In this document: piece after piece, positions 487 through 26,207 of the stretch
Numbering within the stretch: position 1 is the first letter of the stretch
Layout: every line of letters begins with the position of its first letter
Source of the DNA: Candidatus Moranbacteria bacterium RIFOXYB1_FULL_43_19
GTDB lineage: Bacteria > Patescibacteriota > Minisyncoccia > Moranbacterales > UBA11712
DNA: 53,014 nucleotides
Assembly (NCBI GenBank): GCA_001784875.1
Contig: MFSH01000018.1
Location: 13,968 to 66,981, forward strand
Direction: 5' to 3'
Made by a program: the position numbers and the translations under genes
Notes under the pieces: model-generated
What the model saw: only the letters and a program-made list of their open reading frames with translations
The model's database searches: none
What the model was told of the DNA's origin: nothing

Positions 487-2487
487 TCATTTCCCCGCAA
501 TCAGTGTCAAGCTCTCTGCATTTCCATCTTCCGTGTTTTTTTCAACTCTTGTCTGATACTTGCCCGCGCGCAAAAACGCAGCCAGGTCTTCGGCGCTGTC
601 TTTTTGAACGTCGTCAGAATAAATCACCGCGAGCCCCTGGTTGTCTTTTCTTTGCGCTTCCCCGATTTCTTCTTCAGGTGTGAAGCCGCCCTGGTAAACA
701 AGCGTTTTGATTTTTTCCGTCTCTTCTTTTCCCGCCCCGCCTTCAAGTAATTTTATTTTCACGAGATCCCGCTTCACGGAAGCTTTGCTATCAAGAGATC
801 CGAGATCCAAAAGTTCGTCTTTTGGAAAGAGATTATAAACAATCACATCTTTTTCCAAGCCGCTGATTTCTTTGAGCTCCGCATCATCCCCTTTTCCCAA
901 ATCGTTTTTTACCATTTCGGCCTGGTCTTTTTTCGACGGCGCGTATTCAACCGTGATTTTCGAATACTGGCGGCCGGCCAAATCGGAAACCGGCGCGGCG
1001 TCATATCCCATAAGCTGCATTTTTTTGAGAAGCCTCGTTCCCGAAACCGGGTCAATCCCCGAGGGAGTGAAAACTCCCGCCCGGATACTCGACTTTTTGG
1101 CCGCTCCGGAAATCGTCTTTTCCTGGCTTTCCTGGGGCTGAGCCGCTTGTTCTCCGGCGGGAGACGGCGGCGGAGCTTGGAGAATTCTCGAGCGATTTTT
1201 GTATTTGTGGGCCCCGACTGCTCCGAAAACAACAACCAATCCGATCAGGATATACAGAATTTTTCTCATCTTGCTTTTTTTCATTTCGCTTTTTCCTTTG
1301 AGCGGGGGGTGAAGCCTGCTTTCCTCGACCATTTTCACGAGAAGGTCAATGTTGCGCCGACTGGTCGGGATGAAGAGCTTTTGTCCCGTTCTGACCTCAA
1401 AAGGTTTTCGAATTTCATTTATTTTCGCCAGTCTTTTCCAATTCACGAAAAACAGCGAAGACAGGCTTCCCAGCGTATCCCCTCCTTTTACCGTGTAAAC
1501 GGGCATTTTTTCTTTGCTGGCTTCGCGGAAATATTGGAAAATAAGTCTTGCCAGAACAAGAAGCACGAAAAGGGAAACGAGAATAATCGCAATTCGATAC
1601 GGAAACGCCCAAATCACAATTTCTTTTTCGCCTGTTCCGACTCCCTCCTCGGCAAAACTGACGGAGAGCTTGGCTTTGTATCGCCCCAGAAGCGGAGCTT
1701 TGTCCCAAATTAAAAAGGATTCTTTGTTTTCTCCCCGGGGAAAAATCATCCCGATTTCACCCTCGGGAACATCGGCTGTTTTTTGCCCGAACATATTGAA
1801 AACTTCGACTTTTGCTTTGGGAGAAATTCTCACGTTGCCCTTGTTTTTAAGGCCGATCAGAAAGGTTGTTTTTCTGTTGAGATCCAAAAGGTCCCTCCAA
1901 AGATTTCTTGTCTTTTTGGGATCGGTGCGCCATTCAAAGCGGGTGATTTCAAAATTCTTCTTAACCTCGCCCGGAACCGTTTCATAAATCCTCACTCCCA
2001 CCCGGGTGACGATTTTCACACCCGTTCCGGAAATTTTTCCTTGCTCGGCGCCTTCTATTTCCTGCATCACTATTCCGCCGGCATGGTCTCCAATGTCGGC
2101 GTCCTTGGGAATTGTCACGGTGAAAGGCACTGATTTTTCGGTGTTGGGAGGGAGCTCAAATTCGTTGGCAGCCAGTTTTACCCAGGCTCCGATATCCGTC
2201 CGTGACGCGTCTTCCGGAAGAAGAGCAAAGGCTCCATCGCTGGTGGTTGTCGCGTCAACGGCGTATAGCTTGATGACGACCGTCTCTTTTTTGTTGTTGA
2301 TGACCCTTACTGCGTCCTCTTTCGACTGTCCCAAGTCTATTTTATAGAGAAACCAGGCATCGGAAAATTTGACGTTTGGGTCAGGATGGGCCGGAAGGAT
2401 TCCGACAGTTTCCGTGTTTACGGCTTTTGTCACCGCCGGAAAAGCAAAAACAGCTATCAACAAAAAGAAGAGAATATTTTTCTTCAT
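487..2487 (-). CDS. DUF916-like / LysM / LytR_C membrane protein (possible WxL-interacting protein)
   Basis: 666 residues. A signal peptide (1-22, cut near TKA) is followed by a beta-sandwich region at about 27-145 that resembles DUF916, the peptidoglycan-binding domain of WxL-interacting proteins (a GGIV motif at 137-140 follows the predicted last strands). A second Ig-like region covers about 175-290. Then come a membrane helix (296-318), a LysM domain (329-374, starting YTVKGGDTL), a second helix (408-428), a Pro/Gln linker and a LytR_C-like domain (466-550), possibly with a second degenerate copy to the end. LysM and DUF916 domains both bind peptidoglycan. In Gram-positive bacteria DUF916 proteins are encoded with WxL proteins, and three WxL-like genes lie 9 kb away. 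The LysM call is firm; DUF916 is by fold pattern and LytR_C is moderate. Confidence 0.75.
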   Translation of the reverse strand: MKKNILFFLLIAVFAFPAVTKAVNTETVGILPAHPDPNVKFSDAWFLYKIDLGQSKEDAVRVINNKKETVVIKLYAVDATTTSDGAFALLPEDASRTDIGAWVKLAANEFELPPNTEKSVPFTVTIPKDADIGDHAGGIVMQEIEGAEQGKISGTGVKIVTRVGVRIYETVPGEVKKNFEITRFEWRTDPKKTRNLWRDLLDLNRKTTFLIGLKNKGNVRISPKAKVEVFNMFGQKTADVPEGEIGMIFPRGENKESFLIWDKAPLLGRYKAKLSVSFAEEGVGTGEKEIVIWAFPYRIAIILVSLFVLLVLARLIFQYFREASKEKMPVYTVKGGDTLGSLSSLFFVNWKRLAKINEIRKPFEVRTGQKLFIPTSRRNIDLLVKMVEESRLHPPLKGKSEMKKSKMRKILYILIGLVVVFGAVGAHKYKNRSRILQAPPPSPAGEQAAQPQESQEKTISGAAKKSSIRAGVFTPSGIDPVSGTRLLKKMQLMGYDAAPVSDLAGRQYSKITVEYAPSKKDQAEMVKNDLGKGDDAELKEISGLEKDVIVYNLFPKDELLDLGSLDSKASVKRDLVKIKLLEGGAGKEETEKIKTLVYQGGFTPEEEIGEAQRKDNQGLAVIYSDDVQKDSAEDLAAFLRAGKYQTRVEKNTEDGNAESLTLIAGK

Positions 2488-2534
2488 ACAAAAAACTAGG
2501 TTAACTTATTAGGATCTTGTTTTTTCTTGTTATT

Positions 2535-2563: not shown

Positions 2564-2564
2564 G

Positions 2565-4172
2565 CTATGGTCGCCTATAGATGGAGGCCAATCCGTCTGA
2601 ATAAACTTTTTTCCAGCCGATTTTTAAATAGGCGGTGTCGTTGGCCCAATTGCTGTAGAGAATAGCAAAGTCAATGTCGTATTTTTCCAAAGTCTTTTCC
2701 CAGCCTTCGTTATAGCGCACTGTATTGTTGAATTCCTCGAAAATCTTGAAGTCCCCCAGTCGCCAGCTGGGCATCCGCCCGTCAATATAGACTTTTTTCT
2801 CCGGGTATTGCCAGATGAGAAAACCTCCCCAGTTATATTCGTTGAGCATATTTCCCTCAATTGGATTCTCCTGAAGATATTTCACTGCGCCGAAGGGATA
2901 GCCTCCGTCGAAGGCCAGCTTTTCGATTGAAAATGAAGTTTTCCAAACGGGATAAATTTGCTGCCTTCCGAGAAGAAACACGGCCAAGACCATCAGCGCC
3001 AAAAACCATTTTCGGTGCATTATTCTTTCGAGCTCTCCGCCCGTAATCATCTCAACGATATAGACCCAAAAAGGAGTGCTGATAATCAAGAACACCGGCA
3101 TATGCCGCCAACTCGCAAAACCGAGATATAAAAAAGGAAGAGCTACCAATAAATATGAGCAGTCCAGTTTCCGCCAGCTGAAAAGAAGGAGAATTCCGAG
3201 AAGGGTGAGATAAATCAAAAATTGCCAGCTCATTGGGTTTTGGGCCGTCACCGGAAGCCATTCGCCGATATTTTGCTTCGCGTATTCGTCAAAAATCGTG
3301 GTGACGACTTCAATATACACCCGCCAGCTGTAGGGATTCGCGAGAGTCGCGAGGGCCGAAGCGGAAAATATTATCCCAAGCTTTGCGATTTTCCCGAGAG
3401 CCAGCGTGTTTTCCTCAAGTATTTTTCCGAATTTCAGAAATATTTCCGATCGAGATATTCTTGCCCACATCGCCGGATGCCGTTCAAACAAAATATTGCC
3501 CTTTGGAGATACGGGATAATTCTGGAATCGCAAACCGAATTTTCGCATTCCAAAAATAAGCACTCTCTTCGCCATTTCAACGGCCAAAAAAACTGCTATG
3601 AAAAACAAACCCACCGCAAACCCACCGTGGAAATTTACCCAAAGAAAAAATATTGCCGGCAACCAACATATTTTTCTTGTGTCCGGGTTTTTACGGAACT
3701 GAAAAATTATATAAATGACAAGCGCGAGACCCAAGAGCGTGATCATCTGCGGACGGACTCCGGTGATCGGAAGACTGGCAATGGCCGCGAGGATAGCCGC
3801 CGTAATTTTGTATTCCAGTTTGGCTTTGATTCCCAGCGTAACGAGGAGAAACGCAAAGGTAGTGATGATGGCGAAAATAACCGAAAGAACAAAAAGATTC
3901 AGCCAGCGGGAAACGGCAAACATCCAGATGTCGGTCACCCATTCGTGCATAATAAGCGGAAATTCGGCCATCGAATGGGAAAAAATGTCCTTTTGAGCCG
4001 CCTTCAAATGATGGTTCAACAAATATTCCCCGTCCGCAAGATGCCAACCCATGTCGGGATCAACGGGAGATTTCAAGGCAACGAAGAAAATGATAAAAAC
4101 ACCGAGAATAATGAATATGTTTCGGGCGGTTAGATGGATAAATATTCTTTTGAGGAAATTTTGGGAGTTCAT
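2565..4172 (-). CDS. Polytopic GT-C-like membrane protein
   Basis: 535 residues with about ten hydrophobic helices. Near the N-terminus a D-P-D-M-G-W-H-L segment is followed by a short amphipathic region, the layout of the first extracytoplasmic loop in GT-C glycosyltransferases, where an acidic motif binds the lipid-linked sugar donor. The C-terminal soluble part contains YNWGGFLIW and YIDGRMPSW, a signature I associate with uncharacterised GT-C-like proteins of candidate phyla. It lies upstream of the DUF916-like gene on the same strand and downstream of a second GT-C-type gene, separated from it by a 145-base repeat-rich gap. A role in lipid-linked sugar transfer or protein O-glycosylation is inference. 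Confidence 0.65.
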   Translation of the reverse strand: MNSQNFLKRIFIHLTARNIFIILGVFIIFFVALKSPVDPDMGWHLADGEYLLNHHLKAAQKDIFSHSMAEFPLIMHEWVTDIWMFAVSRWLNLFVLSVIFAIITTFAFLLVTLGIKAKLEYKITAAILAAIASLPITGVRPQMITLLGLALVIYIIFQFRKNPDTRKICWLPAIFFLWVNFHGGFAVGLFFIAVFLAVEMAKRVLIFGMRKFGLRFQNYPVSPKGNILFERHPAMWARISRSEIFLKFGKILEENTLALGKIAKLGIIFSASALATLANPYSWRVYIEVVTTIFDEYAKQNIGEWLPVTAQNPMSWQFLIYLTLLGILLLFSWRKLDCSYLLVALPFLYLGFASWRHMPVFLIISTPFWVYIVEMITGGELERIMHRKWFLALMVLAVFLLGRQQIYPVWKTSFSIEKLAFDGGYPFGAVKYLQENPIEGNMLNEYNWGGFLIWQYPEKKVYIDGRMPSWRLGDFKIFEEFNNTVRYNEGWEKTLEKYDIDFAILYSNWANDTAYLKIGWKKVYSDGLASIYRRP

Positions 4173-4317: not shown

Positions 4318-5790
4318 CTATAAATTTTTTCTGAACAACAAATACCCGTCTTCATCAAAAATCAAATCATATTTATCCGACCTCTTCAACTCCTCGATAT
4401 TTTCCTGCCATTCGAGCGTGTCCATCTGCAGAGCATATTCAAATCCGAAAATCTGCTTGGGATTGTCCGCAAACGGGTCGAAAGTATCGAGCAGGACATA
4501 TTCCGCCTCGTCTTTTTTCAGGGGAAAACGGTAGATGAATTGCCGCTCCGAAAAATGAGGGCCCAGATTGTGCTGGATGGAAAGCGAGGCATCGGCCGGA
4601 ATCATTTTTTTTACTTCGCCGATTTTTTTGGCGTGGGCGCTCGGGAGATAGTCGCTTATTTTGTAATTCGGCGACAGCGGAAAAACTCCATAGAGAATAC
4701 TCGATCCCAGGCTAAAAGCAAAAACAAGGATCGCAAACATCCAACGCAAGAATTTGTCCTCCAAAAACCACTTTTTATAAGTATAAATGGAGGCAAAAAA
4801 CACGAAAGGCGCGAAAATCGCTGAATGATAGAAAGAAACGCTGAAAGTCATCGGATTGCTGCTCAATATCCCGATAAAAAGAACCGGCAAAATTATCCAA
4901 AATGGCCAGGAGAAAAGGGCCAGTGAAAAAACCGGAGCAACAAGAATAAAAATATACTTTAGTCTTTCATAAGAAAAAATCACTTTGAAAATTGTCAGTG
5001 GATGGAGAATTATATTTTTGGCTATTTCCGAAAAACTTGAACCGAGCCAGGCGTAGCGTGACGGATACATTGATTCGCTATAGATAAGCGCCGGCTTTCC
5101 CGTCGAGGAAAAATAGGGAATAAGAACCGTCATAACAAGAAAAAAATATAGGAGGGAAACCCCGCTCACGATAATCCCGAATTTCTTTCTTTTTTTTATG
5201 AAAATGAGATAAAGCCCCATCATAAACACCAAAAGCGGCAGGTGTTCCTGGCTCAAAGCTAGAAGCGCGGCAAAAAAAATGAACCATCTGTCATTCTCAT
5301 TTTCAAGAAAATATAAGGCCCAAGCGGCGAAAAAAACAGCCAAAACAATTTCATGGAAATCATAAAGGAGGCCGTTTCCAAGCGCTGGATAGAGCAAGTA
5401 TCCAGCTAGCATCAAAAGCCCCAGCTTGCCGCTTTTGAATTTTTCTTTGGCAAAAAGATAAATAGGGATCGCGCTTCCTCCCACCGCGAGAGACTGAAAA
5501 AACAAAAGCCATTTCGGCGACGCAAAAATGAAGTAAAAAGGCAAAAAAATCATCAAAATTGGACTGAAATGAGCGCCGAGATAGTTATCTATATTTACCA
5601 TACTTGAAGTGAGATGGAAAAAATTTCCGTGAACCGTGCTCCAGAGCGCCTGGTCATAAGTTCCCAGATCGTTGAGATAGGATTTCAGGGCGTCATGCCT
5701 CCCGAATGAAAGCGCGGTGAAAACAAGCACAAAAACGATTATGAGAAGAAGAGCTATTTTTTCGGTTTTTGCCTTTCCGATCGAAATCAT
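4318..5790 (-). CDS. DUF2079 family polytopic membrane protein
   Basis: 490 residues from the ATG at 5790. That start makes an ATGA overlap with the stop of the methyltransferase upstream; a longer frame to 5907 would run deep into that gene. The sequence after the first helix (LNDLGTYDQALW, then a histidine-containing loop before FSPILM) is characteristic of DUF2079, a GT-C-like family of predicted membrane proteins. About eleven helices are visible, with YDFHEI in a loop and an SQEHLP motif. DUF2079 has no proven reaction; by fold and context it is probably a glycosyltransferase using a polyprenyl-linked donor. The four-base overlap implies translational coupling with the methyltransferase. 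Confidence 0.8.
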   Translation of the reverse strand: MISIGKAKTEKIALLLIIVFVLVFTALSFGRHDALKSYLNDLGTYDQALWSTVHGNFFHLTSSMVNIDNYLGAHFSPILMIFLPFYFIFASPKWLLFFQSLAVGGSAIPIYLFAKEKFKSGKLGLLMLAGYLLYPALGNGLLYDFHEIVLAVFFAAWALYFLENENDRWFIFFAALLALSQEHLPLLVFMMGLYLIFIKKRKKFGIIVSGVSLLYFFLVMTVLIPYFSSTGKPALIYSESMYPSRYAWLGSSFSEIAKNIILHPLTIFKVIFSYERLKYIFILVAPVFSLALFSWPFWIILPVLFIGILSSNPMTFSVSFYHSAIFAPFVFFASIYTYKKWFLEDKFLRWMFAILVFAFSLGSSILYGVFPLSPNYKISDYLPSAHAKKIGEVKKMIPADASLSIQHNLGPHFSERQFIYRFPLKKDEAEYVLLDTFDPFADNPKQIFGFEYALQMDTLEWQENIEELKRSDKYDLIFDEDGYLLFRKNL

Positions 5791-6662
5791 TTTTTTCGAG
5801 CGATGAGAAAAATATTGTCGCGGAGATTGAGATAAAAATTTATCCGTCCCATCCGGCTTTTCAGAAAATAATTGGATATTTTTCTTGAAACGGGATTTTC
5901 TTGCCAATTGGCCAAAACCTTGAAGACAGTTTGCAGGCTGAATTTTTTTCCGACGCGGGATATCTTCATGACTTCAAAGCCGTTTTTCTCGAGAACCGCT
6001 TTCAGATTATCGCAATTGAACAGATTGAGATGGTTCGGGGGAACAATCGCGTGCCAGCGTTTTCCGAATATTCTGGCTAACACGCTTCGGGAATCAGGGG
6101 TGTTTATGGCCAGTATGCCGCCTGTTCTCAAAATCTTTCGAGCCTGCTTAAAAGCCAAATCGGGTTTTCCGAAATGCTCAAGAACATCCCAAAAAGTGAC
6201 CGCGTCAAAACAATTTTCAGAAAATTCATGATTTTCAAAATCGCCGACCGCGATTTCCAGTCCCTTTTTTCTCGCTTTTTTTGCCGCGTATTTTGAAATT
6301 TCAATGCCGCTCGCCTCCCAACCGTTTTTTCGCGCCAGCTCAAGAAAATGCCCGGTCGCCGCTCCGACATCGAGAAGTTTTCCTTTTCGCGGCAAAATTG
6401 CTTCGGTTTTTTTGAGATATTTTTTGAAAGTTCCGCCGAGTATCTCGCGGTCGCTTTCATAATCGGCATACCCTAATTCGTTTTTCGCCCCGGAAAAATA
6501 ATCTTCCTCATAGAGCGCGAAGTGATTTTCCGGCACAGGCCAAACAAAAATCAAACCGCATTCCCGGCAAAGAAAAACGTCGCAACCGTTTTTTTGCGTG
6601 AAAAAACTGGCATCCTGGCCTTGGCAAGCCAAACAAGTCGTTTTTTTCAATTTGTATGCCAA
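5787..6662 (-). CDS. Zinc-ribbon class I SAM-dependent methyltransferase
   Basis: 291 residues. An N-terminal zinc ribbon is formed by C10, C13, C32 and C35. The methyltransferase core follows: the SAM-binding loop LLDVGAATG (96-104), an acidic residue at the end of strand 2, and FWDVLEH followed by a proline-rich strand 5. This arrangement (zinc ribbon plus Methyltransf_23) is common in glycan and surface-polysaccharide loci, where members methylate sugars or lipid-linked glycans. It is the first gene of a minus-strand operon with the DUF2079 gene. It is divergent from the GT2 gene at 6746 across only 83 bases, so the two promoters must lie back to back. The substrate is unknown. Confidence 0.85.
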   Translation of the reverse strand: MAYKLKKTTCLACQGQDASFFTQKNGCDVFLCRECGLIFVWPVPENHFALYEEDYFSGAKNELGYADYESDREILGGTFKKYLKKTEAILPRKGKLLDVGAATGHFLELARKNGWEASGIEISKYAAKKARKKGLEIAVGDFENHEFSENCFDAVTFWDVLEHFGKPDLAFKQARKILRTGGILAINTPDSRSVLARIFGKRWHAIVPPNHLNLFNCDNLKAVLEKNGFEVMKISRVGKKFSLQTVFKVLANWQENPVSRKISNYFLKSRMGRINFYLNLRDNIFLIARKK

Positions 6663-8809: not shown

Positions 8810-8825
8810 AACAGACTCAAGGCCA

Positions 8826-10005: not shown

Positions 10006-10855
10006 GATCAACGAGGGCATCGGAGGAGCCTACGAAAGAATCGCCTATTCAAATATGCTCAAGCGCCTCGCCCGCCAGCACAATTGCCGGACAGTCTTGG
10101 AGCTGGGCGCGACATATATCGCCGGCATACCCGGCTTCAACAGCTGCCTTCTCGCCCAGGACGGATTTTCTGTCACCGTGACCGTCCATTCCCGCGATTA
10201 CGCGGATACGCTCAAAGTTTGGGAAAATGTTCCATTCAAAGGCGAGACAAAAATCATTGAATGGAACGACAATCTCAAAACAAATTTTTCCGACGGCCAG
10301 TTCGATCTGGTCTGGAACCATTTGGCTTTCGAGCATTATAAGAATCCGGTCCCGCTTGTTGAGGAGATGAAGAGAATTTCCAAAAATCTCGTGGTGAATT
10401 TGACGTTAAGCCCTTTCAATATTGGCTTTCCTCTCCATTGGCTCTCCCACAAAATAAACAGAAAAAAGTGGGACCACGGCTACTTCAAAAACACGCTCAT
10501 CTCCACAATGGAAAAAACCCACCGCAAAGCCGGCCTCAAGCACATTGAGTCCGGCGGCTGCGACGTTCCGCCTTGGATGGATACGGTGGATGCTCAAATG
10601 GGCGGGACGATGACATATCTCGACTATTCGCCGAAATTCGTGAAAGACAAGTGGGTCTGGAATTCGGCTCTTTCGGAATGCCAAAAAAGTCGATGGGTCA
10701 AAATGCTTTGGAACTGGGAAAAAAATATGCCGGAATGGTTCCGGCGACTCTCCGCACATCATCTTTATACGGCAAGTAAAAAGTCAAATCAAGCCAAACC
10801 GCAATTTCCAAACAATCCACAAGGCCTCCCAGACAATCAGGCGGGAAATTTTTGA
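9992..10855 (+). CDS. Class I SAM-dependent methyltransferase
   Basis: 287 residues. The motif-I region is VLELGATYIAGIPG, a slightly divergent SAM loop, and motif IV/post is FDLVWNHLAFEHYKNP, typical of Methyltransf_11-like enzymes. The C-terminal 120 residues, with many Trp and Lys, do not match a domain I know and may bind the acceptor. It overlaps the preceding small membrane-protein gene by 14 bases. Its 3' end overlaps the convergent GT2 gene by 72 bases, so the last residues (after about 263) are encoded opposite that gene's C-terminus. Likely modifies a glycan or lipid intermediate of the same block; substrate unknown. Confidence 0.75.
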   Translation: METIRINEGIGGAYERIAYSNMLKRLARQHNCRTVLELGATYIAGIPGFNSCLLAQDGFSVTVTVHSRDYADTLKVWENVPFKGETKIIEWNDNLKTNFSDGQFDLVWNHLAFEHYKNPVPLVEEMKRISKNLVVNLTLSPFNIGFPLHWLSHKINRKKWDHGYFKNTLISTMEKTHRKAGLKHIESGGCDVPPWMDTVDAQMGGTMTYLDYSPKFVKDKWVWNSALSECQKSRWVKMLWNWEKNMPEWFRRLSAHHLYTASKKSNQAKPQFPNNPQGLPDNQAGNF

Positions 10856-11488: not shown

Positions 11489-11504
11489 CAAAGTTATTAT
11501 AGCA
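11489..11504 (-). promoter_or_regulatory. Extended -10 promoter with leaderless start (Dpm1-type gene)
   Basis: On the minus strand TGC-TATAAT (TATAAT at 11501-11496) is followed by seven bases and ATG at 11488. No good -35 hexamer is visible, as is usual for extended -10 promoters. Transcription would start at the A of the start codon. Confidence 0.5.
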
Positions 11505-12269: not shown

Positions 12270-12294
12270 GGTTGCTCTTTATACCATTATCTCG

Positions 12295-12867: not shown

Positions 12868-12924
12868 TTGTTTTTATTTTCGATGCAATGGCGGAATTAA
12901 AAATCGAAAATGACAATTGCTGTT

Positions 12925-13961: not shown

Positions 13962-16900
13962 TCACTGCAGCGTGAATGTCATCGTCGCCTGGTCGCCTGT
14001 TTCGGCGTGGAGGGTATTGAGGTTTTCAAAGCGTGAGGTGATTTGAATGTCATAATCTCCTTCTGCATCATTACCATGGGCAATATTTTGGACAGAATCA
14101 AGCGATAAATTTCCATTGACTGATTCCGTAACTTTCCCGTCGTTGGGGCTTATGACCGTAGGAGTTGAAGTGACTGTTCCGTCGCCGCTCAACTTTATGT
14201 TTGTATTGGCCAGATTATTTTGCGCGCCCGTGAGATTGGTGGAATAAACAGTAAGATCCCACTCAGGATTACTGCCAGTATCAGTTACTGTACATTTTTC
14301 CGAAGAAAGAAAATCTTTGATATTATAATTATTTGTATCGCCTAGAGTATAGTCAGGCATTGCCGCACCAGCAGCGCAGGAAAGGCTCAAGACTATTCCG
14401 CTGCCGGAATCATCCCACCGCAGCATTCCCGGATCGGCTTCGTTCGCACCGTCGTCTCCGTCATACGACTCACCGTCATAGGTTCCGGTCGAGGCGTCGA
14501 AATCCCAGTATCCGGTATCGTCCGTTCCGGTCCGGTTCACGTTGAATTCAACGGAGGTGTCGGTCCGGTCGAAGTTGACGCCCGTGATCGTTTTCGTGCC
14601 GGAGCCGATCACTGCGCTGGCAACCGTGATGTAAGCGTCGTTTGTGGCGGCGCTGCCGACCAGATTGTCAAAATCGGTGTAGTCAAGTTTTGTCACGGTT
14701 GCACCGGATTGAATATCCAGTCCCAATGTTCCGTCCTGATGGTCAAAATTGGCATATTCAAAATTGATCGTCCCGCCGGAGAGGATCGACATTTCATATC
14801 CGCCCGAAGCTCCCTGCCGATCAACCGTCGTCCGATTTGATGAAGTTCCAATCGCGTTCAATGTATCTCCGGATTCGACAGTCACCTTGGCGGCCGGATC
14901 GATCCGCACATCGACTTGTCTCGTCACCGCCGCGTTGTCAAAATCGGCCGCGTAACTCCAGTAATCATTTGTATTCACATGATAGTCTCCCCAGATATAG
15001 AGATCCCCATCCGTATTGGCATGGTCCATGGAATAGAGAGAACCGGAGGAATCAACAGTATAGGGGGTGGTCGCATTGACGGCATTTGACTGCCACATCC
15101 GGATGTCGGTGTTGGCGCCGATCTGCAATTTGTCATAACTTTCCGCGTTTTGCGTTTTTGAACCGATGGTTTGTGAGGTCCCGTTGAGATAGAAAATCGA
15201 ACCCGTGTTCCAGGTTGTGGCGGAAGTTTCTGCGTTGGCGATCGAATATGTCCCCGTCACTTCCAATGTCCGGCTAGCAGCGAGTGCCCAGGCGGAAACA
15301 TCGGTGATGGTGAGGTCAACCGCTTTCATGTCATTCGTTTGGATTGTCCAGCCCCCGCCGGAATTGTTGAAGATGACGTCATGAAAAGGTTTTCCGGCTC
15401 CGGTCCCGCCGGCGTCGATCGTTTCCCCGGTATCGGCCGAGTCAAAAGTGACCAGCGAAGAGTTGGGCGTGAAGGTTCCGGCGTTTGACCAGCTTCCTCC
15501 GACATTGATGGCATAATTCGTCCCGGTATCGAGAGTGGAATTGGAATTCGCGATCGAAAGGTCGTTTTCAACGTCGATGGCAGCTTGCATGGTGATAGTC
15601 GCCGAAGCGGACTTGGAGATCGTAAGGTTATAGAAATCGTGGTTTTCATCCGTCCCACCCGGAGAAAGATTTCCGGAAGAGCTTTCGTCAAAGGTGACAG
15701 TCGTCGGATAGGTATCTGATTCTTGGGCAGTGAACGTTCCCCCGCTGGCCACAGTCCAGGTAGTTCCCAGATTGATGTTGGTTCCGTTTCCGGAGGTGGC
15801 TTGAGTGCCATCAAGGGTTCCGTTCACCGTGATGAAGGTGGCGATGTTGAGATCCCAGCCTTTGGTATTCAGCCGGTCTCCAGTTGATACCGTCAAGCTG
15901 TCCGCTGTCATATCCGAGCTCATATTGATCGTGGCCGGAGAGGCTCCGATCTGAACCGTGCCCATATTTTGCTTGGTGGAATTTTTGTCGTTGAAATATA
16001 CAAGGTTTGTGTCATCGCCTCCGTCGAGAATGAGAGTTCCCGATCCAGCCGTCCAGGTGCTCCCCGATTCAAGAGTGAAGTCACCCAATGCTGCCCCGTC
16101 CGTTCCGACGGTGATGTTTCCCGAACCGCCGGTGAAAGTTCCATAATTGTTCATTGTGAAGTCGCCACCGATGGTGAGCGCCGGATCATTTGTCGTCGCG
16201 TCAATTGTCACCGGTTCCGTCCCCGACCCGTCGTTTATGGTCAAATTTCCAGCCACGGTGATTCCTCCTGAAGCAAGGGTCAGCTTATTCCAATAGACAT
16301 CCGTATTGTCGGAATAGAGATAATCGATCTGCGACGACCCGCCGTTGTTGAAGCGAAATGACCATTTTGCCTTGACATCGTAATTTTCTGCACCTACGAG
16401 ATTAGTTTCTCCTAGCCAACTCCCATTATATCTATCGTAATCAATATGACCCATGAGAGATTCAACATCAGTATAAAAAACATATATGTTCGTTCCATTA
16501 ATCGCAATCGACGGCTCATATCCAGGGTTTGAATTGGTATACGTATCCCACGCGCTCCAAGCCGCGCCGTGAGCATGCCTGACAAGAGTTATATAATTTG
16601 TCGTCGCGTCTACATACACCACCCAAGTGTTGCCGGAAGAGTCAACGGCGATGGAGCATCCTGCTTGGCTCGCAGTGACATTGGGAGTCGAATCAACGTT
16701 ATACTCGTCAGGAAAAGAAGTGGCGTTGTTGGCATTGCCCCTTTCCACAGTCATCTCATCTGTCGTCTGGTCAATAACATAACTAATTTGGGGGATATCA
16801 TCTTCGTCAATCGTAATATCTGCAGATCTTATCGCCATTCCGGCTTGAGATTCAACAATAATGCGGGCATTCCATGAGCCGCCAAAACGGTTGCCATAAT

Positions 16901-19900
16901 ATAAAGTTGGAGTGGCTCCTAAACCCTCCTCTCCTTTCATTAAAATATGAGGAATATTATTGGAATCAAGTGTAATTGCTTGGGGTATATAAGTAGATTC
17001 CGTCGGATTGCCATCGTAGATGAGAGCAGGACTCCCAAAAGAAGAACCGGAAAATGTTACGTAATATGTGTCCAAAGAATCAGTTGTCTGATAAATAATA
17101 TGAATCGTATTATTCCCATCAATCGCCGCGGCGACATTTGAGTTGGCGATTGTCGCGGCGGGCGAGTTGCCAGAATCCTGTTCCGTCCAGCTTGTTCCGT
17201 CGGTTGATTTCCAAACTTCAAGATCGTCGTTTGTGTCGTCCAAAAGAACAGCGTATAAATTTCCCGAAGAATCCCTGACAATCTGTCTCGATGAAGCTTG
17301 CAGATCTCCAAAATCCGATGCGTCGTTTATTTTCACCGCCGTGCCGTTGGATTCCGTCGCCGCGCCCATCAAAGTGTAGGTCGGCGTTCCTGTTCCGGAG
17401 GGCGAGAGCTCCAAATTGTTATAGGTTTCATCTTCAATATCCACATTGGCGCTGTAGCCGGTGTATTTCACGGTCGAATTCGTTCCTTCAGTGAGCGTCC
17501 CGTCAACAATAAATGGCCGCGATGAGCCGGTTCCAGCTCCGGTGAGGGTGAGGATATCCGAAGTGATATCAAGATAGTCATCCGAACTATTCACCATGAG
17601 TGAAGTCACTTTCACATTGCTGTTTGTTGAAAGCGTAGTATTTGTTGCTGGGCCAACTGAAACCGCACCAAGGTCCTGTCCGGAAGTCAAATCAGTTATG
17701 GATTGGGAACTGCCGTTGAAAGTCATCGTCGCTGGCAGATCCGATTTGGTCCAAGTGGTGTAGTCGTTGATCGTCAAATTGCCGCCGATGTTGATGGTTG
17801 GGTCGTATGTATCCCAGCGCACCCCCAGCGTTTGCGTCCCAGAACCATCATTGACCACAAAATTGCCATTCACATTTATGGTTTGCGAACCGGCGGTGCC
17901 AAGGGTATAAGCTATTACACTCATAGATGGAAAGAGATGCAAATTATTATATGTGGTGCTTGTTATATTCATGTTGGAACCTGAGCCATAAACAACCGTT
18001 GAATTGGTAACTGTGAATGTTCCGGTAGTATGAACAAAAGCAGCACCCGAACCAGTTATTGTTAAAGTATCGTCGGTAATATCCAAAGTATCATTACTTC
18101 CTATATTAATGTTTGCAACCTTCATCGAGCTGGCCGTCGAAACAGAAGTCGTTGTGGCTGCGGTTCCGACATACACAAAGTTCAACACTTGTCCGGATGA
18201 AGAATCCGTGAAGGATTGAGAGACACCATCAAAAGTCCATCCTCCTGCTCCAGATGTGACAAAAGCTGAAGAACCAATTGTCACGTCTCCAGCCATCTTG
18301 ACCTCTGGATTTCCACTGGTGAGTATGAGATCTCCGTTAGTGATGTTGAAAGCGCCGTTCACGTCAAGGTTTCCTGAAATCGTCACATTGTCATCCGTAC
18401 CATCGGCGCCGGTGTTGTTGAGGGTAACGATATTATACTCGGCCGCATTTGTTGTGAATGTTTGGGCGGTTGAACCGTTGAAATTTATCGTACTCGTGGA
18501 AGCCGTGAATGTTCCCGCGTTTGTCCAGTTGTGGGCGATATTATAGATGCTGTTTCCGCCCGAAGTGAGAGTTCCGGTGATCGTGAGGTCATATGTCGTC
18601 AAAATTTCTGTTCCCGCGACCGTCAAGGTATCTCCTGAAAGAATATCGATTTTTTCCGTCGCATAGTCATCCCCGCCGTCAACAGTCAAAGTGAAGTTGG
18701 GATCCGTCCCACTGCAGAGGTGCATCACGTCTTCGTCGTCGCCGTTGTCATAGTTATAAGAGGCGTTGCAAAGGTCAGCGACTGTCACGCTTCGCGTTCC
18801 CGCGTCTCCGATTGAGAGGACATTCGTGTTCAAAATCATTCCAGTCACGCTTCCCGAACCGCTGTATCTCGTGATGCCGGTCGATTCCGACGCGTCCGCG
18901 ATGTCCCCGTCCCCGTCCGTCGCGAAAACAGTGACGATGCTGTTGGCTCCGGGCTGGGTGACTCCGGCAATCGACCAGCTTGTGTCCCCCTGAACTGTTC
19001 CCGTTTCTCCCTGGAGCGATCCGCCCACCGCCACCGCCACGGTCGTACCAACCCCGATATTTGAGTTTCCGGCAATGAGAAAAGGGGTTGCCCATTGCAG
19101 CATCCCCGGGTCGGCTTCGTTGGAGCCGTTGGCTCCGTCGTAGGCCTCTCCGAAGAATGTCCCGCTGGGCGGCTCAAAATACCAGTATCCGGTATCGTCC
19201 GTTCCAGTCCGGTTCACGTTGAAGTTTGCATAGCTTCCAGTGTTGTCAAAATTGGCGCCGGTGATCGTTTTGTTTCCGGTTCCGATGACCGCCGAGGCGA
19301 CAGTGATGAAAGCGTCACTTGAAGAATTGTCAATCAGGTTGTCAAAATCGGTGTAGTCAAGACTGGTGACAGCCGCGCCGGACTGGATATCAAGCCCCAG
19401 AGGGCCGTCCTGATGGTCAAAATTGGTATATTCAAAATTGATCGTCCCGCCGGAGAGGATCGACATTTCATATCCGCCCGAAGCTCCCTGCCGATCAACC
19501 GTCGTCCGATTTGATGAAGTTCCAATCGCGTTCAATGTATCTCCGGATTCGACAGTCACCTTGGCGGCCGGATCGATCCGCACGTCAACCTGGCGTTCTG
19601 AACCGCCGGAAAGCGAAGTTCCGTCAAAATCGGTGGCATAACTCCAGTGGTTGCTGACAAGAGTATGATAATCTCCCCAGATATACAGGTCGCCATCCGT
19701 GTTGGCGTGATCCCTCGAAAAAAGCGATCCGGTGGAATCGACTTCATAGGGTGTCGTCGCGTTGACCGCCCGCGAATTCCACATTCGTACATCGGTGTTC
19801 GCGCCGATCTTCAGCTTGTCATAATCTTCAGCCGATTGGGTTTTGCTCCCTACTCCATATGCAGTGCCGGAATTGAGATAAAGGATTGACCCGCTGCCCC

Positions 19901-22900
19901 AGGAGGTGGCGCCGGTCTCGGCGTCCGCGATGGAATAGGTCCCGCCGACTTCAAGCGTTCGGCCGGCCGCCAGCGTCCACCCGGAAACATTGGTGATGGC
20001 CAGATTGCCGGCCGCTTTCATATCGCTGGTCTGAATCGTCCATCCGCCGGAGCCGTTGTTGAACTGGACGCCGGAGAAAGCCTTTCCGGATCCAGTTCCG
20101 CCGGCCTCGATTGTTTTTCCGGTCGAGCCGGCGTCAAAAACGACTGTGGCCGAGCTGTGGTTGAAAGTCCCCGAGTTCGACCAGTTTCCGCCCACATTGA
20201 AATGTCCCGAGTCGGAAGCGGTATAAGTCGCGGACGAGGCAATCGTGAAATTTCCATTGATGTCCACTTCCGGATCGTTGGTGTTGGCAGTGGCCGTCAC
20301 GGCGTTTACTCCGTCCCCGACAGTCAGATTGTTGGCAACAATGGAGCCCGTTGATTCCGAGCCGAAAATGAGATTGTTCCACCAGACATCCCCGCCCGCC
20401 CCTTCGGAATAGAGGTATCCGATTCGCAGATCCCCCTGATTGTTGAAATTATACGACCATTTCGTTTTCACGTCCTGAAAGGTTCCCGCGGACAGCGCCG
20501 TTTCCCCGCTCCAGCCGCTTTCATAAACGTCATAGACAATGTCGTCCGCGTCATCAGTATAGAAAAGATAGGATTTGGCTCCTTTGAGAGCCAGGGACGG
20601 TTCGAACCCGACGCTTGAGTTGTTGTAGGTCGTCCAGCCGCTCGCCCAGCCGGAAGCGGCGTCGTGCTTCGCCAGCGAGACGTAATTGGTCGTTTGGTCG
20701 ACATAGGAAACCCAGGCGTTTCCGGCCGTGTCAAAGGCTATGTTGGCCGCCGTGTTGGACGTGGCAATGGAGGTATCCGGATTGGCTTCGGTGAAAGCGG
20801 CGGCATCGTTGTCGTCTCCAAGCTCGGCCCAGAGATTGGTGTTGTTGGAAAAAATATGGGCGATGGCCGGAACGTCGCTCGCGTTCACCGTGATGGCGCA
20901 GGAAATGAATTCATTGACATTGTCCTGATGGACTTCGAATGGACTTTTCCAGGACGCGCCGACTTTGTTCGAATAGTGGAGATAATATTTTGTCGGAGAA
21001 ATAGTATTGTACTTGAACACCACGTGCGGCTTTCCGCTTGAGTCAAGGGTGATGTCATGTCCGGTGATGGCAAAGTTGGCGTTGGACACGATGTTTTCCG
21101 GCGCGCCGAACTGGTTGGTTCCCGTGTCAAAAATGACGTATTTCAAATCTCCGCCTACGGCGTAAACGACATGCAGGTTGTCGGAACCGTCAATCGCGAC
21201 TGAAATTCCGTCCCCCTGGTCGCCGGCCGGGGAGTCGCCGGCATCCTGCTGGCTCCAGGAGGATCCGCTGGCCGAGCTCCAGACCTCGACATAGGTGCCG
21301 TCGTTCACCACCGTATAAAGCGTCCCTCCGCTGGTCCGGACCAATTGCCGTCCGGCGCCGGGAAGAGTTCCGAAGTTGGACGCGTCGTCTATTTTATAAG
21401 ACGTATTCGTGGTATCGGTTCCGGCCATTCCCAAGGTATAAGTAGGGTTGCTCCCGCCGGACGGGGAAATTTCCAAATTATGGAAAGTTTCTCCGGCGAT
21501 GTCGGTGTTCGATGTCCCGGTGAATTTCACGGTCGAATTCGTCCCTTCGTTCAAAGTTCCGCCATCTATATAAAGGGGGCGGGAAACCAGCGTGCCGGAT
21601 CCTGAAAGCGTAAGGGTATAACCGGATGAGCCAAGATTGAGGGTCGTCCCGGTATTCACGGTCGCCTGTCCCCCGACTTCCAAATTGCCCGCCAAAGTCG
21701 TCGCGGCGGTTCCGTCCAGGATGAAGTTCCCGCTGATGGAAGCCGTACCGGACTGCAAAGTTTTGGTTCCGCTGTTCGACAGAGTGAGGTTGTTGTAATT
21801 TATCGCTCCCACGGTCTGGGCCGCGCCGTTGTAATCCACGGTCGAGCCGGTGACGGTATAGGAATTTGTCCCGACGGTGAACGTGCCGCCGATTCCGATT
21901 GTGCCCGACGATGCCAAAGTCCTCGATCCGGATCCCGAGCTTGAAAGGTTGCCGTAGTCCACGGCGGAGATAGTTTGCGCCGAATCGGAGACATAGGCAA
22001 CGGTGAGATTGGTGAGCGTTTTGTTGGTTATTGTATATTGCGAGGAGAAATCCGGGGTAGCCGCCGTCCGCGTCACTTGCGCAGTTCCCGATCCGGTGAG
22101 CGTCCCGGACCCGTTCATGACCACCCCCGCCGCCGGAGTGAGAATGGCGCCCGCGCCCACCGTCAAAGTCCCGCCGGTCGAAAAATTGGTGCTTGCCGAA
22201 ACCGCCGCCGAAGAATTGGATATGTTCAAATTGTTGAAAGTCGTCGCCGTCGTCCCGTTGATCGTCTGCGCCACCGAGCCGTTCATATTCACCGTGCTCG
22301 ACGACTGTGTGAAAGCGCCGTTGTTCGTCCAGTTATGGGAAACATTATAGACGCTCTCCCCGCCCGAAGTGAGAGTTCCGGTGATCGTGAGGTCGTATGT
22401 CGTCAAAGTTTCCGTTCCGGCGATTGTCAGAGTGTTTGCGGACAGAACGTCTATTTTTTCCGCGATATAGGTTTTCAAGCACCCCTCCACGCTCAAAGTG
22501 GAAGAGGAGAAGGCGTGCATCACGTTTCCGCCGCCCGATGAAGCGCAGGTGAAATCATCCGCTTCGGCTGAAGTGACGCCGGAGCTGTTAGCGCTTCCGA
22601 TCGAAAGCGCGTTGGCGTCAAGCACCATCCCGGTCATATCGCCGTCCCCGTCCCACTTGGTGATGGCAGTGGACTGGTTGCCGGCTGTGGCCGTGTCCGT
22701 CCAGACAATCACCGAGTTTCCCGAGGCTATGTCAGCCGCGGGAATAGAGATTGACCAGTTTCCCGTGTCGGCGTCAATTGTGCCAGTGTTGGCGTGAACC
22801 GTCCCGTTGATGGCCACTTTGACCGTGTCACCGGTTCGCATGTCGGAAGCTCCGGAGATAATTTTCGGCACTGCCGACAATCTGAAAGCAAAGTCAACCA

Positions 22901-25900
22901 CATCCGTGGTCGCGGAAGCGAGCGAATCTTCCAGGAATGCTCCGCCGCCAGTCAGATCCGTCCAGGCCGTCCCGTCCGTTCCCGCTCCGTTCCAGGTGTC
23001 CGCCCACAGGTCGCTGTTCTGGTCAGCGGTGAGCAGCAAGACTTTGTCGGCATTGGGATAGTCAAAAAGGTCAACGAAACGTGTCGCGCCTCTGGATCTC
23101 GCATTAACAGTCAAATTAGCTGAAAGATCGCCGGAGCCATACGTCCACCAGCTGATATCGTCCGGGGCGGCACTGGAGGAAAAAACGGCAACGGCATTAT
23201 AAGTGGAGTTGAAATTTGTTACAGCAGCCAATTGATAGTTGGCCGCCCAAGTCTGCAGGTTCGTATCTCCATCACCATCATCGTCTATCCCGGTGCCGGT
23301 CCAGGCAAAACCTTCCGACAAGGTTGTCGCCGCCACCCCGTGAGTCTCAATGACGATCACGTCACTTGACGAACTGGGTTCCTGAAGATCCGCAAAGCCG
23401 GTTATCACATCCACCCCGGTTGCTGTTGAAATTGTCCATGTCGTTCCTGACAATTGGCCGTAAGCGACCGTGCCGGCTGACGCTAAAGGCGCGGCCACGA
23501 ACATATCTCCCGATGTTCCTTCAAAAGACACGTCAAACTTTCTGACATTCCCAGTGGTCGCGCTAGCGGTGATCGGAACGGATGGCGGTTCGTCGGCCGC
23601 GGCCGAGCCGTTCCATCGAAACGCGCTCACGTCGTCGTTGGTATCCGAATAGGCAATGCCGATCTGGTCACTGCCGGGCCTTGATGTCAATTCGACCCAC
23701 TCCACTGTTCCGCTAGTCCGGTTCAAGGCGATGGCGGCGTCATTCGCCCACGACCCGCCGGCTCCACCCGACCATTCAATTTTTCGCAGCGTATCGGCCG
23801 TGGACGTTCCATACACCAAAATGGCTTGGCCGGTGGATTGTTGTTCATAGGCGACATCAAAGTTTCTGAAGTTGGCTCCGCCTGACGCCGTGATTTGCGT
23901 CGGAGTGCCGCAAGACACTCCGCCGTCAACACCGGTGCACACCTGCGCCTTTATCACATTTCCCGTGTCTTTGGTGGCAATGATCCATTCATCATTCACG
24001 GGACTGGCGGCCACGCGGATCCAGGCTATCGCGTTTGAACCGACCGACGATGCGTTTTGTTCGCTTCCAAATCCAGTGGTGTCATCGAAGGTCTTATATT
24101 TGGGAGTGCCCGTCGTTCCGTCGGCATAAACCAGCAGCCCGCCGGAATATTGGGCGATCGGCGCATCCACCGCGATCTGCCACTGGCGTGCTTCCTCAAA
24201 AAGAATGTTCGACGAAATGCCCGTATCATGGGACGCCACCATATTTTTTTCAATAAACCGAAGCGGGCCGAGAAGATAGAATTGCGGCGATTCATCCGGC
24301 GCGTCATATTCGTATGAAAGTTCGAATTTATCTCCCTTTTTTACATCCACATCCCAGACAATATTTTTTTCACCAGAATTTTTGTCATTGGAATTTTGGA
24401 TTTCGAATTTATTTAGTGCTTCGGATTTAGGATTTAGGATTTCGAAGCTGTCGGGAACAGCTTCGCGTATCTCTCCCGTGAAATCCTGGTTGGCTGTGAT
24501 ATCAAACATCACCGGATACTTGTTTCCCGGAAAAATTCTGGTCGCTGTTGTCCGTTCCACATCGAACGCAATCGTGTTGCTCACCTCAAATTTGTCTTTG
24601 ATCGTGTGCGTTCCATTGGCTGTTTCCGCGACGAGCGTCATTTCATAGGTCCCCCATTCGCCGACTTTATACTCCGCCGCGTAGTCCGGATCGAGCGTGA
24701 ATTCTTTCGACTGACATGTTTCTTGGTTCACTTTTATCGTCCCGTCTTCAGTCGATAACTTTAGGATTTCGGATTTCGGATTTAGGATTTCCAAGCGAAG
24801 CTTGGCATCGCATACCATCGCCCCGCTCTCGTTCAAAACCGCCAGCGAAATTTTGGCCGTCTCGTCGGGAGAATAGATTGATTTGTTCACGTTGATTGCC
24901 AGCACTCCCCAGCTGAAATCCTGGGTGGAAGTGAGAACTTGCGTCCCGTCTGATGAGAGCATTTCCACCCGCAAACTGTATTTTCCCGGTTTGAAAACCC
25001 GCTCCGGCTTCACGACGGTGATTTCGGCTTTCCCGTTTTTTTCCTCAACCAGAGTGGCAATTTCTTTTTGCGGCTCCCCTGATGCGTCGAGCACCTCGGC
25101 CTTGATGACTCTCTCGCCGGCCGCGCCGGCTTCTTTCGGCCCGATCCATTTTCCCATCTTGCTCCAAAATGCCGCTGACAATTTTTTCTGCTGGCCGGAA
25201 GCCAGATTTTGGTGCTTATGAAAAAAATCGGTGAGCCGGGCGAATTCCTTTTTTGTCATTCCGATTTTTTCAAAATCCTTTTTGAGGTTTCCAAAAAAAG
25301 AGGCTGTCGCTGAAGCGCTCATCGGGCTCGGCATTCCACCAAAGGCCAGCGGAACGCCCGGGCCGGCTGTGTCAAAATAGGGAGCCTCGCTTTCATTTTG
25401 GCTTTGGCTTTCCTCTTCCCCGGCGCTCAAATTTTCCTGGCCCGAATTTTCCGGGTTGTTTGAGCTTTTCCCGCCGAAAGCTCCCGGGTTTTCAGATTCG
25501 GAAGAATTGTCTTCGCCATCGCCGCTTTGGGGAAAATCTTGGTCATCGGCGCCTGGTTCTTCGGTCAGCGCTTTTTCTTGCGGCAATATGCCCGCTTCAT
25601 CAGAAGGATCATTGTTTTCGTTTTCGCCCAGATTCAGATTTTCCAAAATTTCATTTTGGACATTTTCCAAATTGATTTCGACGGGCGACAGCGGCGGCTG
25701 GCTGTCCGGAATCTCAATGACAAATTGCGGATCCTCAGCAACCTGAAAATCTTTTCGCACGTCTTTTCCGCCAGAGGCGGATCCGCCTTGGGCGGAGAAA
25801 ATATCTTTCGCGTCAACTTCCACTCTCGGCAATTTGCTTGCTTCGTCTTTCTCTTCGGCAGTTTCGTTGGAAGATTTATTTTTTGCAAGGCCAGTGAGCT

Positions 25901-26207
25901 TGTAGCTGCCAAAATTTCCAAGCATGAAAACGATCAAAATTGAGGAGACGAGGAAGGCCCGCGACTGAAGGAAAGAAAAATTTATTTTTACCTTTTTATT
26001 TCCCTTTTTTTCGGGATGACTGTTTCCGGAAAAAATATTTTGAAAATATTTGAAGAATTTTTTTCTTTTCGAATTTCTCTGGGAAGGCAAACTCCTCCGC
26101 CAGTCCGTCAGCCGCCTATTCACGCTATCTATTTTTTTTGCCTGCCCCGTAGTTGACGCATTGGCATCATACTTCGGGGTTTTTTTATTTTCCTCCAACA
26201 TATGCAT
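13962..26207 (-). CDS. Giant membrane-anchored surface repeat protein with C-terminal WxL-like domain (4081 aa)
   Basis: One uninterrupted frame. Residues 1-83 are basic and cytoplasmic and 84-103 form a membrane helix, followed by an acidic Ser/Glu/Asn-rich linker to about 320. About 330-640 hold Ig/MG2-like strands ([22 protein letters not shown]). The rest is a long array of beta-helix type repeats ([20 protein letters not shown]) alternating with BNR/beta-propeller-like blocks ([12 protein letters not shown]) and Ig-like units. A super-repeat of roughly 1270-1560 residues occurs twice (for example [13 protein letters not shown] near 1290 and 2560; [10 protein letters not shown] near 2180 and 3740). 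The last 132 residues (3950-4081) end in a WxL-like domain with W3983-D-L and a TMTFTLQ terminus. Predicted: a long fibre held in the membrane at its N-terminus. Two low-complexity/palindrome insertions and one larger palindrome lie in frame. Adhesin or sheath function is inference. Confidence 0.85.
14731..14909. repeat. 179-bp direct repeat, copy A (in giant gene)
   Basis: Nearly identical to 19405-19583: 14754-14909 matches base for base at an offset of 4674, and one mismatch lies at 14753. Surrounding repeat sequence is clearly more diverged, including silent positions, so this tract was copied or converted recently. Confidence 0.85.
19405..19583. repeat. 179-bp direct repeat, copy B (in giant gene)
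   Basis: Partner of 14731-14909. It encodes the conserved block beginning before [12 protein letters not shown] and including [14 protein letters not shown]. Confidence 0.85.
24391..24465. repeat. GGATTT-type repeat plus palindrome inside giant gene, site 1
   Basis: GGATTTAGGATTTAGGATTT-like copies (24391-24442) run directly into the palindrome CGAAGCTGT-CGGGA-ACAGCTTCG (24443-24465). The frame is kept and the encoded protein shows [12 protein letters not shown] related composite is at 24761-24805. Confidence 0.75.
24761..24805. repeat. GGATTT-type repeat plus palindrome inside giant gene, site 2
   Basis: Four related GGATTT units (24761-24790) abut the palindrome CCAAGC-GAA-GCTTGG (24791-24805). 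The encoded [11 protein letters not shown] repeats the peptide of site 1. Confidence 0.75.
25767..25796. repeat. 30-bp GC-rich palindrome inside giant gene
   Basis: TCCGCCAGAGGCGGA and its inverted partner TCCGCCTTGGGCGGA lie head to head and encode [10 protein letters not shown] in the linker. A relative with the same order of arms lies in the 5' leader at 41194-41225. Confidence 0.75.

What the first reader, a model, noticed from the sequence alone, without database searches (positions are those of the whole stretch)
487..26207. A WxL-type surface system in a CPR-like genome
Four proteins end in WxL-like domains: three tandem secreted paralogs (11685-13582) and the giant protein (W3983-D-L in its last 132 residues). 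A DUF916-like protein lies 9 kb away. In Firmicutes, WxL proteins and DUF916 proteins form one locus and a wall-bound complex. Seen: conserved R-D-x-R-G-x-G-x-x-W strand, GMG motif and TLTLT-type ends. Inferred: these parts form one surface complex here. The giant protein is anchored by an N-terminal helix, so its WxL domain would sit at the far tip, the reverse of the Gram-positive arrangement. Two paralogs have W-A-A instead of W-x-L, so ligand binding may differ.
Basis: partly seen in the sequence, partly recalled or inferred. Interest (0 to 1): 0.85.

Follow-up and report, generated by a model that had tools for sequence, protein, structure and literature searches.

The report
Patescibacterial WxL surface cluster with glycosyltransferases
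A tiny, probably host-dependent bacterium carries a divergent version of the WxL cell-surface protein system known from gut Firmicutes, and across its phylum this system is linked to membrane enzymes predicted to attach sugars to the surface proteins, which makes it a candidate attachment apparatus in bacteria whose host-binding machinery is mostly unknown.

Summary
The 487-2487 protein has a true WxL-interacting-protein (WxLIP/DUF916) domain. The three small secreted paralogs and the last 142 residues of the 4081-aa protein are divergent WxL-family domains: a profile built only from Patescibacteria recognises annotated Enterococcus WxL proteins, and it found the giant's C-terminus before that sequence was used. 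In a sample of 380 Patescibacteria genomes, 11 have a Pfam WxL match and all 11 also have WxLIP (p about 1e-6), usually within 4 kb. Two claims fail. The second Trp of the dual W-x-L motif is absent in all 27 domains aligned. The 'reversed' orientation of the giant is not supported: comparable large proteins carry cleavable signal peptides. The 14 best hits of the second membrane protein all lie within 1.9 kb of a WxLIP gene. Best reading: a WxL/WxLIP surface complex with its own predicted protein-glycosylation enzymes, a new variant of a known kind. No paper in the held library links WxL to Patescibacteria.

The parts
487..2487 (-). WxL-interacting protein (WxLIP): signal peptide, DUF916/WxLIP_PGBD, second Ig-like region, TM helix (about residues 299-317), LysM (331-374), second TM (about 409-427), LytR_C-like tail
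   Evidence: Pfam PF06030 E 1.7e-12, LysM 1.3e-9; profile of 10 orthologs matches the solved E. faecium EfmWxLIP1 (PDB 9i25/9i1y) E 1.1e-9; hydropathy
2062..2391 (-). DUF916 / WxLIP_PGBD domain, residues 33-142 of the product
2565..4172 (-). Polytopic membrane protein 'GTCB', inferred GT-C-like glycosyltransferase (invariant DPDxGWH and HEW motifs, N-Y-WGG-LIW-PE-K-V-DGRM motif)
   Evidence: No Pfam family; alignment of 5; the 14 best phylum hits (>350 bits) all lie within 1.9 kb of a PF06030 gene, 10 of them within 250 bp
4318..5907 (-). Polytopic membrane protein DUF2079; its place in distant clusters is taken by PMT_2 (protein mannosyltransferase-type) proteins. True start probably near 5790
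   Evidence: PF09852 E 2.5e-66; PMT_2 above cut-off in the same position in G184, G228, G257, G215
5787..6662 (-). SAM methyltransferase, conserved neighbour
   Evidence: PF13489; 49% identical neighbour in G007 cluster
10784..11491 (-). Family-2 glycosyltransferase resembling polyprenyl-phosphate sugar synthases (AglJ, PgfS, PpgS), next to the WxL genes
   Evidence: PF00535 E 7e-32; NCBIfam similarities, all below equivalog cut-offs; 65% identical homolog next to the WxL genes in G107
11685..12269 (-). Small secreted WxL-family protein (W-S-L first motif)
12295..12867 (-). Small secreted WxL-family protein (W-A-A first motif)
   Evidence: PF13731 E 1.1e-3, below cut-off
13007..13582 (-). Small secreted WxL-family protein (W-A-A first motif)
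   Evidence: PF13731 E 8.2e-5, 23.1 bits vs cut-off 25; AF2 all-beta model, pLDDT 66
13962..26207 (-). Giant 4081-aa secreted protein: basic N-region and hydrophobic segment, weak MG2-like Ig region, long duplicated repeat block, C-terminal WxL-family domain; the 'large WxL' of the cluster
13962..14390 (-). C-terminal WxL-family domain of the giant, residues 3940-4081, first motif W-D-L
   Evidence: 27-38 bits with Patescibacterial WxL profiles, controls 7 bits or less; 37% identity to the small secreted protein L031:10001-10717 adjacent to WxLIP in a same-genus genome
26241..26741 (-). HTH_17 plus one TM helix; conserved neighbour of WxL/WxLIP or other large surface genes, possible membrane-tethered regulator
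   Evidence: PF12728 E 5e-5, below cut-off; homologs near these clusters in G001 (74%), G107 (45%), G007:C14, G111

Best explanation
The locus encodes a divergent WxL/WxLIP cell-surface complex with its own predicted protein-glycosylation enzymes. Shown from sequence: secreted small WxL-family proteins, a giant secreted protein with a C-terminal WxL-family domain, a WxLIP (DUF916) protein with a membrane helix and a LysM domain, and two polytopic membrane proteins, in a gene order that recurs in distant Patescibacteria. Inferred: the small WxL proteins and the giant are exported by Sec. The two polytopic proteins (one DUF2079/PMT-like, one GT-C-like), using sugar loaded onto polyprenyl phosphate by the neighbouring family-2 glycosyltransferase, add sugars to the Ser/Thr/Asn-rich surface proteins as they emerge. 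The membrane-anchored WxLIP then captures the incomplete WxL beta-sandwich by lending it a strand, as modelled for E. faecium. Small WxL domains form the platform, and the giant docks on it through its C-terminal WxL domain and projects its repeat regions outwards, presumably for adhesion to a host or prey cell.
For: WxLIP domain well above cut-off and matching the solved E. faecium WxLIP by profile. Profile evidence that the small proteins and the giant's tail are WxL-family; the Patescibacterial profile finds annotated E. faecalis and Paenibacillus WxL proteins and a Niallia relative at 18-40 bits without having been trained on them. Co-occurrence 11 of 11 against a background of 114/380, p = 1.2e-6; 8 of 12 Pfam WxL hits lie within 4 kb of WxLIP. 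Gene order small WxL - PMT_2 - GTCB - WxLIP - large secreted protein in G184, G215, G228, G257, with the WxL tail of the large protein confirmed by profile in G184, G215 and G142; close variants in G142, G007, G107. GTCB hits split sharply into those next to WxLIP and those unlinked. GDP-mannose 4,6-dehydratase lies inside the G007 cluster.
Against: Function is inferred from family membership and gene order only; nothing shows that the proteins touch or that the surface proteins carry sugar. No Pfam or NCBIfam family recognises GTCB, and DUF2079 has no proven activity that I know of. In the window itself WxL and WxLIP genes are about 9 kb apart, with genes on the opposite strand between them. 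LysM follows the membrane helix, which would place it in the cytoplasm. The AF2 model of the giant's tail failed (pLDDT 45). DUF3324 was not detected. Genomes in the sample are related, so the p-value overstates independence.
Confidence: 0.68

Rival explanations
1. A WxL/WxLIP surface complex as in Firmicutes, in which the membrane glycosyltransferases are neighbours serving a separate glycan (capsule or cell-wall polysaccharide) rather than modifying the WxL proteins.
For: The window and G007/G107 clusters contain many other sugar and methyltransferase genes. GTCB relatives are also found away from WxLIP in many genomes. The Firmicute and actinobacterial DUF916 loci that were annotated show no GT-C neighbours.
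Against: The closest GTCB subfamily is next to WxLIP in all 14 best cases, in the same order across distant families, and PMT_2, a protein-mannosyltransferase-type domain, fills the DUF2079 slot.
Confidence: 0.22
2. A donor-strand fibre: small WxL proteins are pilin-like subunits that polymerise by N-terminal strand exchange, WxLIP acts as a membrane-bound chaperone, and the giant is the tip adhesin with a C-terminal pilin domain.
For: The AF2 model (pLDDT 66, pTM 0.54) has FimA structures as its five best Foldseek hits, prob 0.97-0.99, E 4e-3 to 2e-2, and VIA Z up to 7.1 over about 131 residues with many chaperone-usher pilins below. Hassan 2023 (PMC10599100) models a WxLIP strand completing the WxL sandwich in parallel. 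Small proteins mostly match the profile from position 1-3 while large-protein tails start at 5-14, i.e. lack the N-terminal extension.
Against: Z below 8 is common for beta-sandwiches and no Foldseek E-value is below 1e-3. No sequence-profile kinship to E. coli K-12 pilins or chaperones. No usher or other polymerisation machinery was identified.
Confidence: 0.12
3. The small proteins and the giant's tail are generic secreted beta-sandwich domains that resemble WxL by convergence or low-complexity composition.
For: Window hits to PF13731 are below the curated cut-off; the second W-x-L motif is absent; Thr/Ser/Asn/Gly-rich composition.
Against: Several Patescibacterial relatives are above the Pfam cut-off, the profile recognises real WxL proteins, reversed and sliding controls are clean, and WxLIP co-occurs.
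Confidence: 0.05

Closest known systems
WxL / WxLIP gene clusters (Csc clusters) of Lactobacillales and Bacillales (PF13731, PF06030, DUF3324; PMC9772566, PMC10599100)
   Same: Secreted small WxL proteins, a large protein with C-terminal WxL domain, one DUF916 protein with C-terminal membrane helix; conserved Asp at W-8 and R-G-x-G turn before the first Trp
   Different: Second Trp lost in all 27 domains aligned (also lost in an annotated Paenibacillus WxL protein); WxLIP extended by LysM; DUF3324 not recognisable; membrane glycosyltransferase genes embedded in the cluster; no LPxTG protein seen; the large protein is 4081 aa rather than 500-1000
WxL-like/DUF916 pairs on actinobacterial plasmids (Streptomyces goshikiensis, Cellulosimicrobium, Clavibacter)
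   Same: WxL-family domain next to DUF916, and endings without the second Trp (TLTLTL and similar)
   Different: Partner genes are RICIN, LamG or GH43 proteins; no GT-C neighbours in the annotated stretches
GT-C protein glycosyltransferases (PMT_2 / DUF2079) with polyprenyl-phosphate sugar synthases, e.g. the Pgf adhesin-glycosylation system of Streptococcus (from memory)
   Same: Adhesin-like secreted substrate, polytopic GT-C enzymes and a family-2 polyprenyl-phosphate glycosyltransferase encoded together
   Different: Linked to WxL/WxLIP instead of a collagen-binding adhesin; activity untested; GTCB matches no Pfam family
Chaperone-usher pili (FimA/FimC/FimH)
   Same: Possible fold similarity of the small WxL model to FimA; large protein with adhesin-like part plus C-terminal subunit domain
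   Different: No usher found, no sequence kinship, fold match weak

Membership tests
WxL domain (PF13731) | Match above the Pfam curated cut-off | tested here: not met
   Window best 23.1 bits vs cut-off 25; met in 5 other Patescibacteria genomes of the phylum sample
WxL domain (PF13731) | Two Trp-x-Leu motifs | tested here: not met
   First motif W-S-L or W-D-L in two of four window domains, W-A-A in two; second Trp replaced in all 27 domains aligned
WxL domain (PF13731) | Homology by profile to authenticated WxL proteins | tested here: met
   Patescibacterial profile finds annotated E. faecalis small WxL proteins (18-38 bits) and Paenibacillus WxL (25-33 bits)
WxL domain (PF13731) | Asp at W-8, Arg at W-6 and G-T-x-A-G turn | tested here: met
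   Asp invariant in 27 domains; Arg in two of the three window paralogs
WxL domain (PF13731) | Binds peptidoglycan | not testable with these tools
   Needs a binding assay
WxLIP (DUF916-DUF3324-TMH) | DUF916 / WxLIP_PGBD domain | tested here: met
   PF06030 E 1.7e-12, above cut-off; PDB EfmWxLIP1 match E 1.1e-9
WxLIP (DUF916-DUF3324-TMH) | DUF3324 second domain | tested here: inconclusive
   No Pfam DUF3324 match at E 1 or below; a conserved second beta-rich region of the right size precedes the TM helix
WxLIP (DUF916-DUF3324-TMH) | Signal peptide and TM helix after the two domains | tested here: met
   Hydropathy: TM helix in 14 of 14 orthologs, signal-peptide-like N-terminus in 13 of 14
[quoted passage not shown]
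   In the window the genes are about 9 kb and more than four genes apart; met in G184
GT-C protein O-glycosyltransferase | Recognised PMT-type domain | tested here: inconclusive
   PMT_2 above cut-off for the equivalent gene in G184, G228, G257, G215; the window protein is DUF2079, and GTCB has no Pfam match
Chaperone-usher pilus | Pilin/chaperone sequence kinship | tested here: not met
   hhalign of WxL and WxLIP profiles against K-12 pilins and chaperones gives probabilities under 3%
Chaperone-usher pilus | Incomplete Ig fold completed by a donor strand | tested here: inconclusive
   FimA is the best fold match but Z 7.1 and Foldseek E 4e-3

The most novel reading that the evidence does not exclude
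Patescibacteria build a glycosylated, donor-strand-linked WxL fibre or platform: small WxL domains polymerise or dock by strand exchange, WxLIP is their membrane-bound chaperone/anchor, the giant protein is the adhesin, and the embedded GT-C enzymes decorate it. It would be a host-attachment apparatus, spread across the phylum, distinct from type IV pili.
Probability: 0.12. Interest if true: 0.9.

Novelty: new variant of a known kind. Interest (0 to 1): 0.66.

Why it matters
Patescibacteria live largely attached to other cells, and most of their attachment machinery is unknown. This locus gives a concrete candidate: a WxL/WxLIP surface system, so far described in the papers I could read almost only from Bacilli, recurring across the phylum and coupled to predicted protein-glycosylation enzymes. 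It also suggests that the second Trp of 'WxL' is not essential to the family, which bears on how the domain works, and it links two polytopic membrane protein families (DUF2079/PMT_2 and the unnamed GTCB) to likely substrates.

Tried and rejected
Direct PDB sequence search with WxL profiles or an E. faecalis small WxL protein found no solved WxL structure. AF2 of the giant's tail was too poor to use, so the giant's WxL assignment rests on sequence profiles. Searches of viral contigs for WxLIP, small WxL and the giant's tail found no relatives, so nothing suggests a viral origin. Short (about 300-350 aa) DUF916-TM proteins in this order sit beside other secreted proteins (SANYKI-type and others; L034-L037), but these score at most about 12 bits with the WxL profiles, so I do not count them as WxL clusters. 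Kinship of WxLIP and WxL with FimC and FimA by profile-profile comparison was not found. The 10865-11338 plus-strand ORF was rejected as antisense to the family-2 glycosyltransferase at 10784-11491. hhalign between the family-1 WxL set and the G021/G024/G128-type set was weak (37%); those joined only by iterated profile search. C-terminal WxL tails of the large proteins in G228 and G257 were not clearly resolved by the profile.
Full report
WHERE IT LIES. The window is part of a 1.0-Mb, 96%-complete genome.

THE OBSERVATION. The three tandem small proteins, the 4081-aa protein and the 487-2487 protein are all real ORFs. The 487-2487 product has a WxLIP_PGBD (DUF916) domain above the curated cut-off and a LysM. 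Two of the small proteins match Pfam WxL just below cut-off. Their first motif keeps the Asp at W-8 and the R-G-x-G turn that PMC9772566 describes for WxL. The second motif, T-L-T-W-T-L or similar in Firmicutes, reads T-L-T-L-T-I here.

IS IT WxL? I built a profile only from Patescibacterial relatives of the three paralogs and iterated it. The profile before the giant or its nearest relative was added finds the giant's last 142 residues at 27 bits over nearly full length; other slices of the giant and reversed sequences stay at 7 bits or less. The same profile finds annotated WxL proteins of E. faecalis and Paenibacillus, a Niallia relative, and WxL-like domains beside DUF916 genes in Streptomyces, Cellulosimicrobium and Clavibacter. 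So these are WxL-family domains. They are not classical dual-W-x-L members: in 27 aligned domains the only invariant column is the Asp at W-8, and none keeps the second Trp. The actinobacterial and Paenibacillus ones lack it too, so its loss is not a peculiarity of this genome.

WxLIP. A profile of ten Patescibacterial proteins matches the solved E. faecium EfmWxLIP1 (9i25, 9i1y) at E 1.1e-9 over the DUF916 half. A second beta-rich region and a membrane helix follow, as in WxLIP, but DUF3324 is not recognised. A LysM follows the helix in both full-length orthologs scanned with Pfam.

SYNTENY. Among 142 relatives the small-WxL profile hits only this genome, G007 and G107, and these are the three genomes with the best PF06030 scores, on the same contigs. 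In G001, same genus, a small secreted relative of the giant's tail overlaps the WxLIP gene by 4 bp and follows a 74%-identical copy of the HTH_17-TM gene that precedes the giant here. In 380 genomes across the phylum, 11 have a Pfam WxL match and all 11 have PF06030 (114 of 380 overall; p = 1.2e-6). Eight of twelve WxL hits are within 4 kb of PF06030. Genomes are related to one another, so the p-value overstates independence.

THE MISSED PART. Between WxL and WxLIP lie two polytopic membrane proteins. One is DUF2079 (E 2.5e-66). In distant clusters (G184, G215, G228, G257) that slot holds PMT_2 proteins above cut-off. The other, GTCB, has no Pfam family but invariant DPDxGWH and HEW motifs of the kind seen in GT-C glycosyltransferases (from memory). 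Its 14 best matches in the phylum all lie within 1.9 kb of PF06030, ten within 250 bp; of the weaker matches checked against the listed PF06030 hits, none is close. The order small WxL - DUF2079/PMT_2 - GTCB - WxLIP - large secreted protein recurs. A family-2 glycosyltransferase resembling polyprenyl-phosphate sugar synthases stands beside the WxL genes here and in G107. This is why I propose that the surface proteins are glycosylated. That step is inferred.

STRUCTURE. AF2 of a small WxL protein gave an all-beta model of moderate confidence (pLDDT 66, pTM 0.54). Its best matches are FimA pilins, but Z is below 8 and sequence profiles show no kinship. Combined with the published model in which a WxLIP strand completes the WxL sandwich (PMC10599100), this keeps a donor-strand fibre open as the most novel reading. 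It does not establish it. AF2 of the giant's tail failed.

ORIENTATION OF THE GIANT. The large secreted proteins of G142, G054, G215, G228 and G257 show what look like cleavable signal peptides (read by eye). The giant has a long basic N-region, a hydrophobic segment from about residue 79 and a plausible cleavage site at A108.

LITERATURE. Searches for WxL or DUF916 together with Patescibacteria or Candidate Phyla Radiation showed no paper holding both. The library lacks most subscription journals and all preprints, so absence there is not proof of novelty.

VERDICT. A new variant of the WxL/WxLIP surface system, spread patchily through Patescibacteria and coupled to predicted protein glycosyltransferases. 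The homology and synteny are solid; the function is inferred.

Noticed in passing
487-2487, residues 299-427: LysM lies between two membrane helices (and, read by eye, behind the single helix in distant orthologs), so by the positive-inside rule it would be cytoplasmic, where a peptidoglycan-binding module makes little sense. In G142 the tail after the second helix matches T2SSG.
   Followed up: partly
27166-34009: Type IV pilin-like and pilus assembly genes lie beside the giant-gene cluster; pilus genes also sit near a DUF916 locus in G098 (L037).
   Followed up: no
26241-26741: HTH_17 domain fused to a single membrane helix with a short outer tail recurs near WxLIP, WxL or large 'NYQGRL'-type surface genes in G001, G107, G007 and G111; a possible membrane-bound regulator.
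   Followed up: partly
13665-13919: Solitary GIY-YIG nuclease-domain ORF (E 1.3e-15) between the giant and the first small WxL gene; similar ORFs occur near DUF916 loci in G021 and G111.
   Followed up: no
13962-26207, residues about 2000-2370 and 3560-3930: The giant contains a long internal duplication at an offset of about 1558-1564 residues, up to 95% identical over 60 residues, suggesting recent duplication or gene conversion.
   Followed up: partly
L034, L035, L036, L037: Pairs of short DUF916-TM proteins beside secreted proteins ending in T-x-T-x-T strands occur in the order but are not recognised as WxL; they may be a parallel partner family.
   Followed up: partly
27844-28518: IS200-like (Y1_Tnp) transposase-domain protein, just below cut-off; a 52% identical copy sits near the WxLIP locus in G001.
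   Followed up: no
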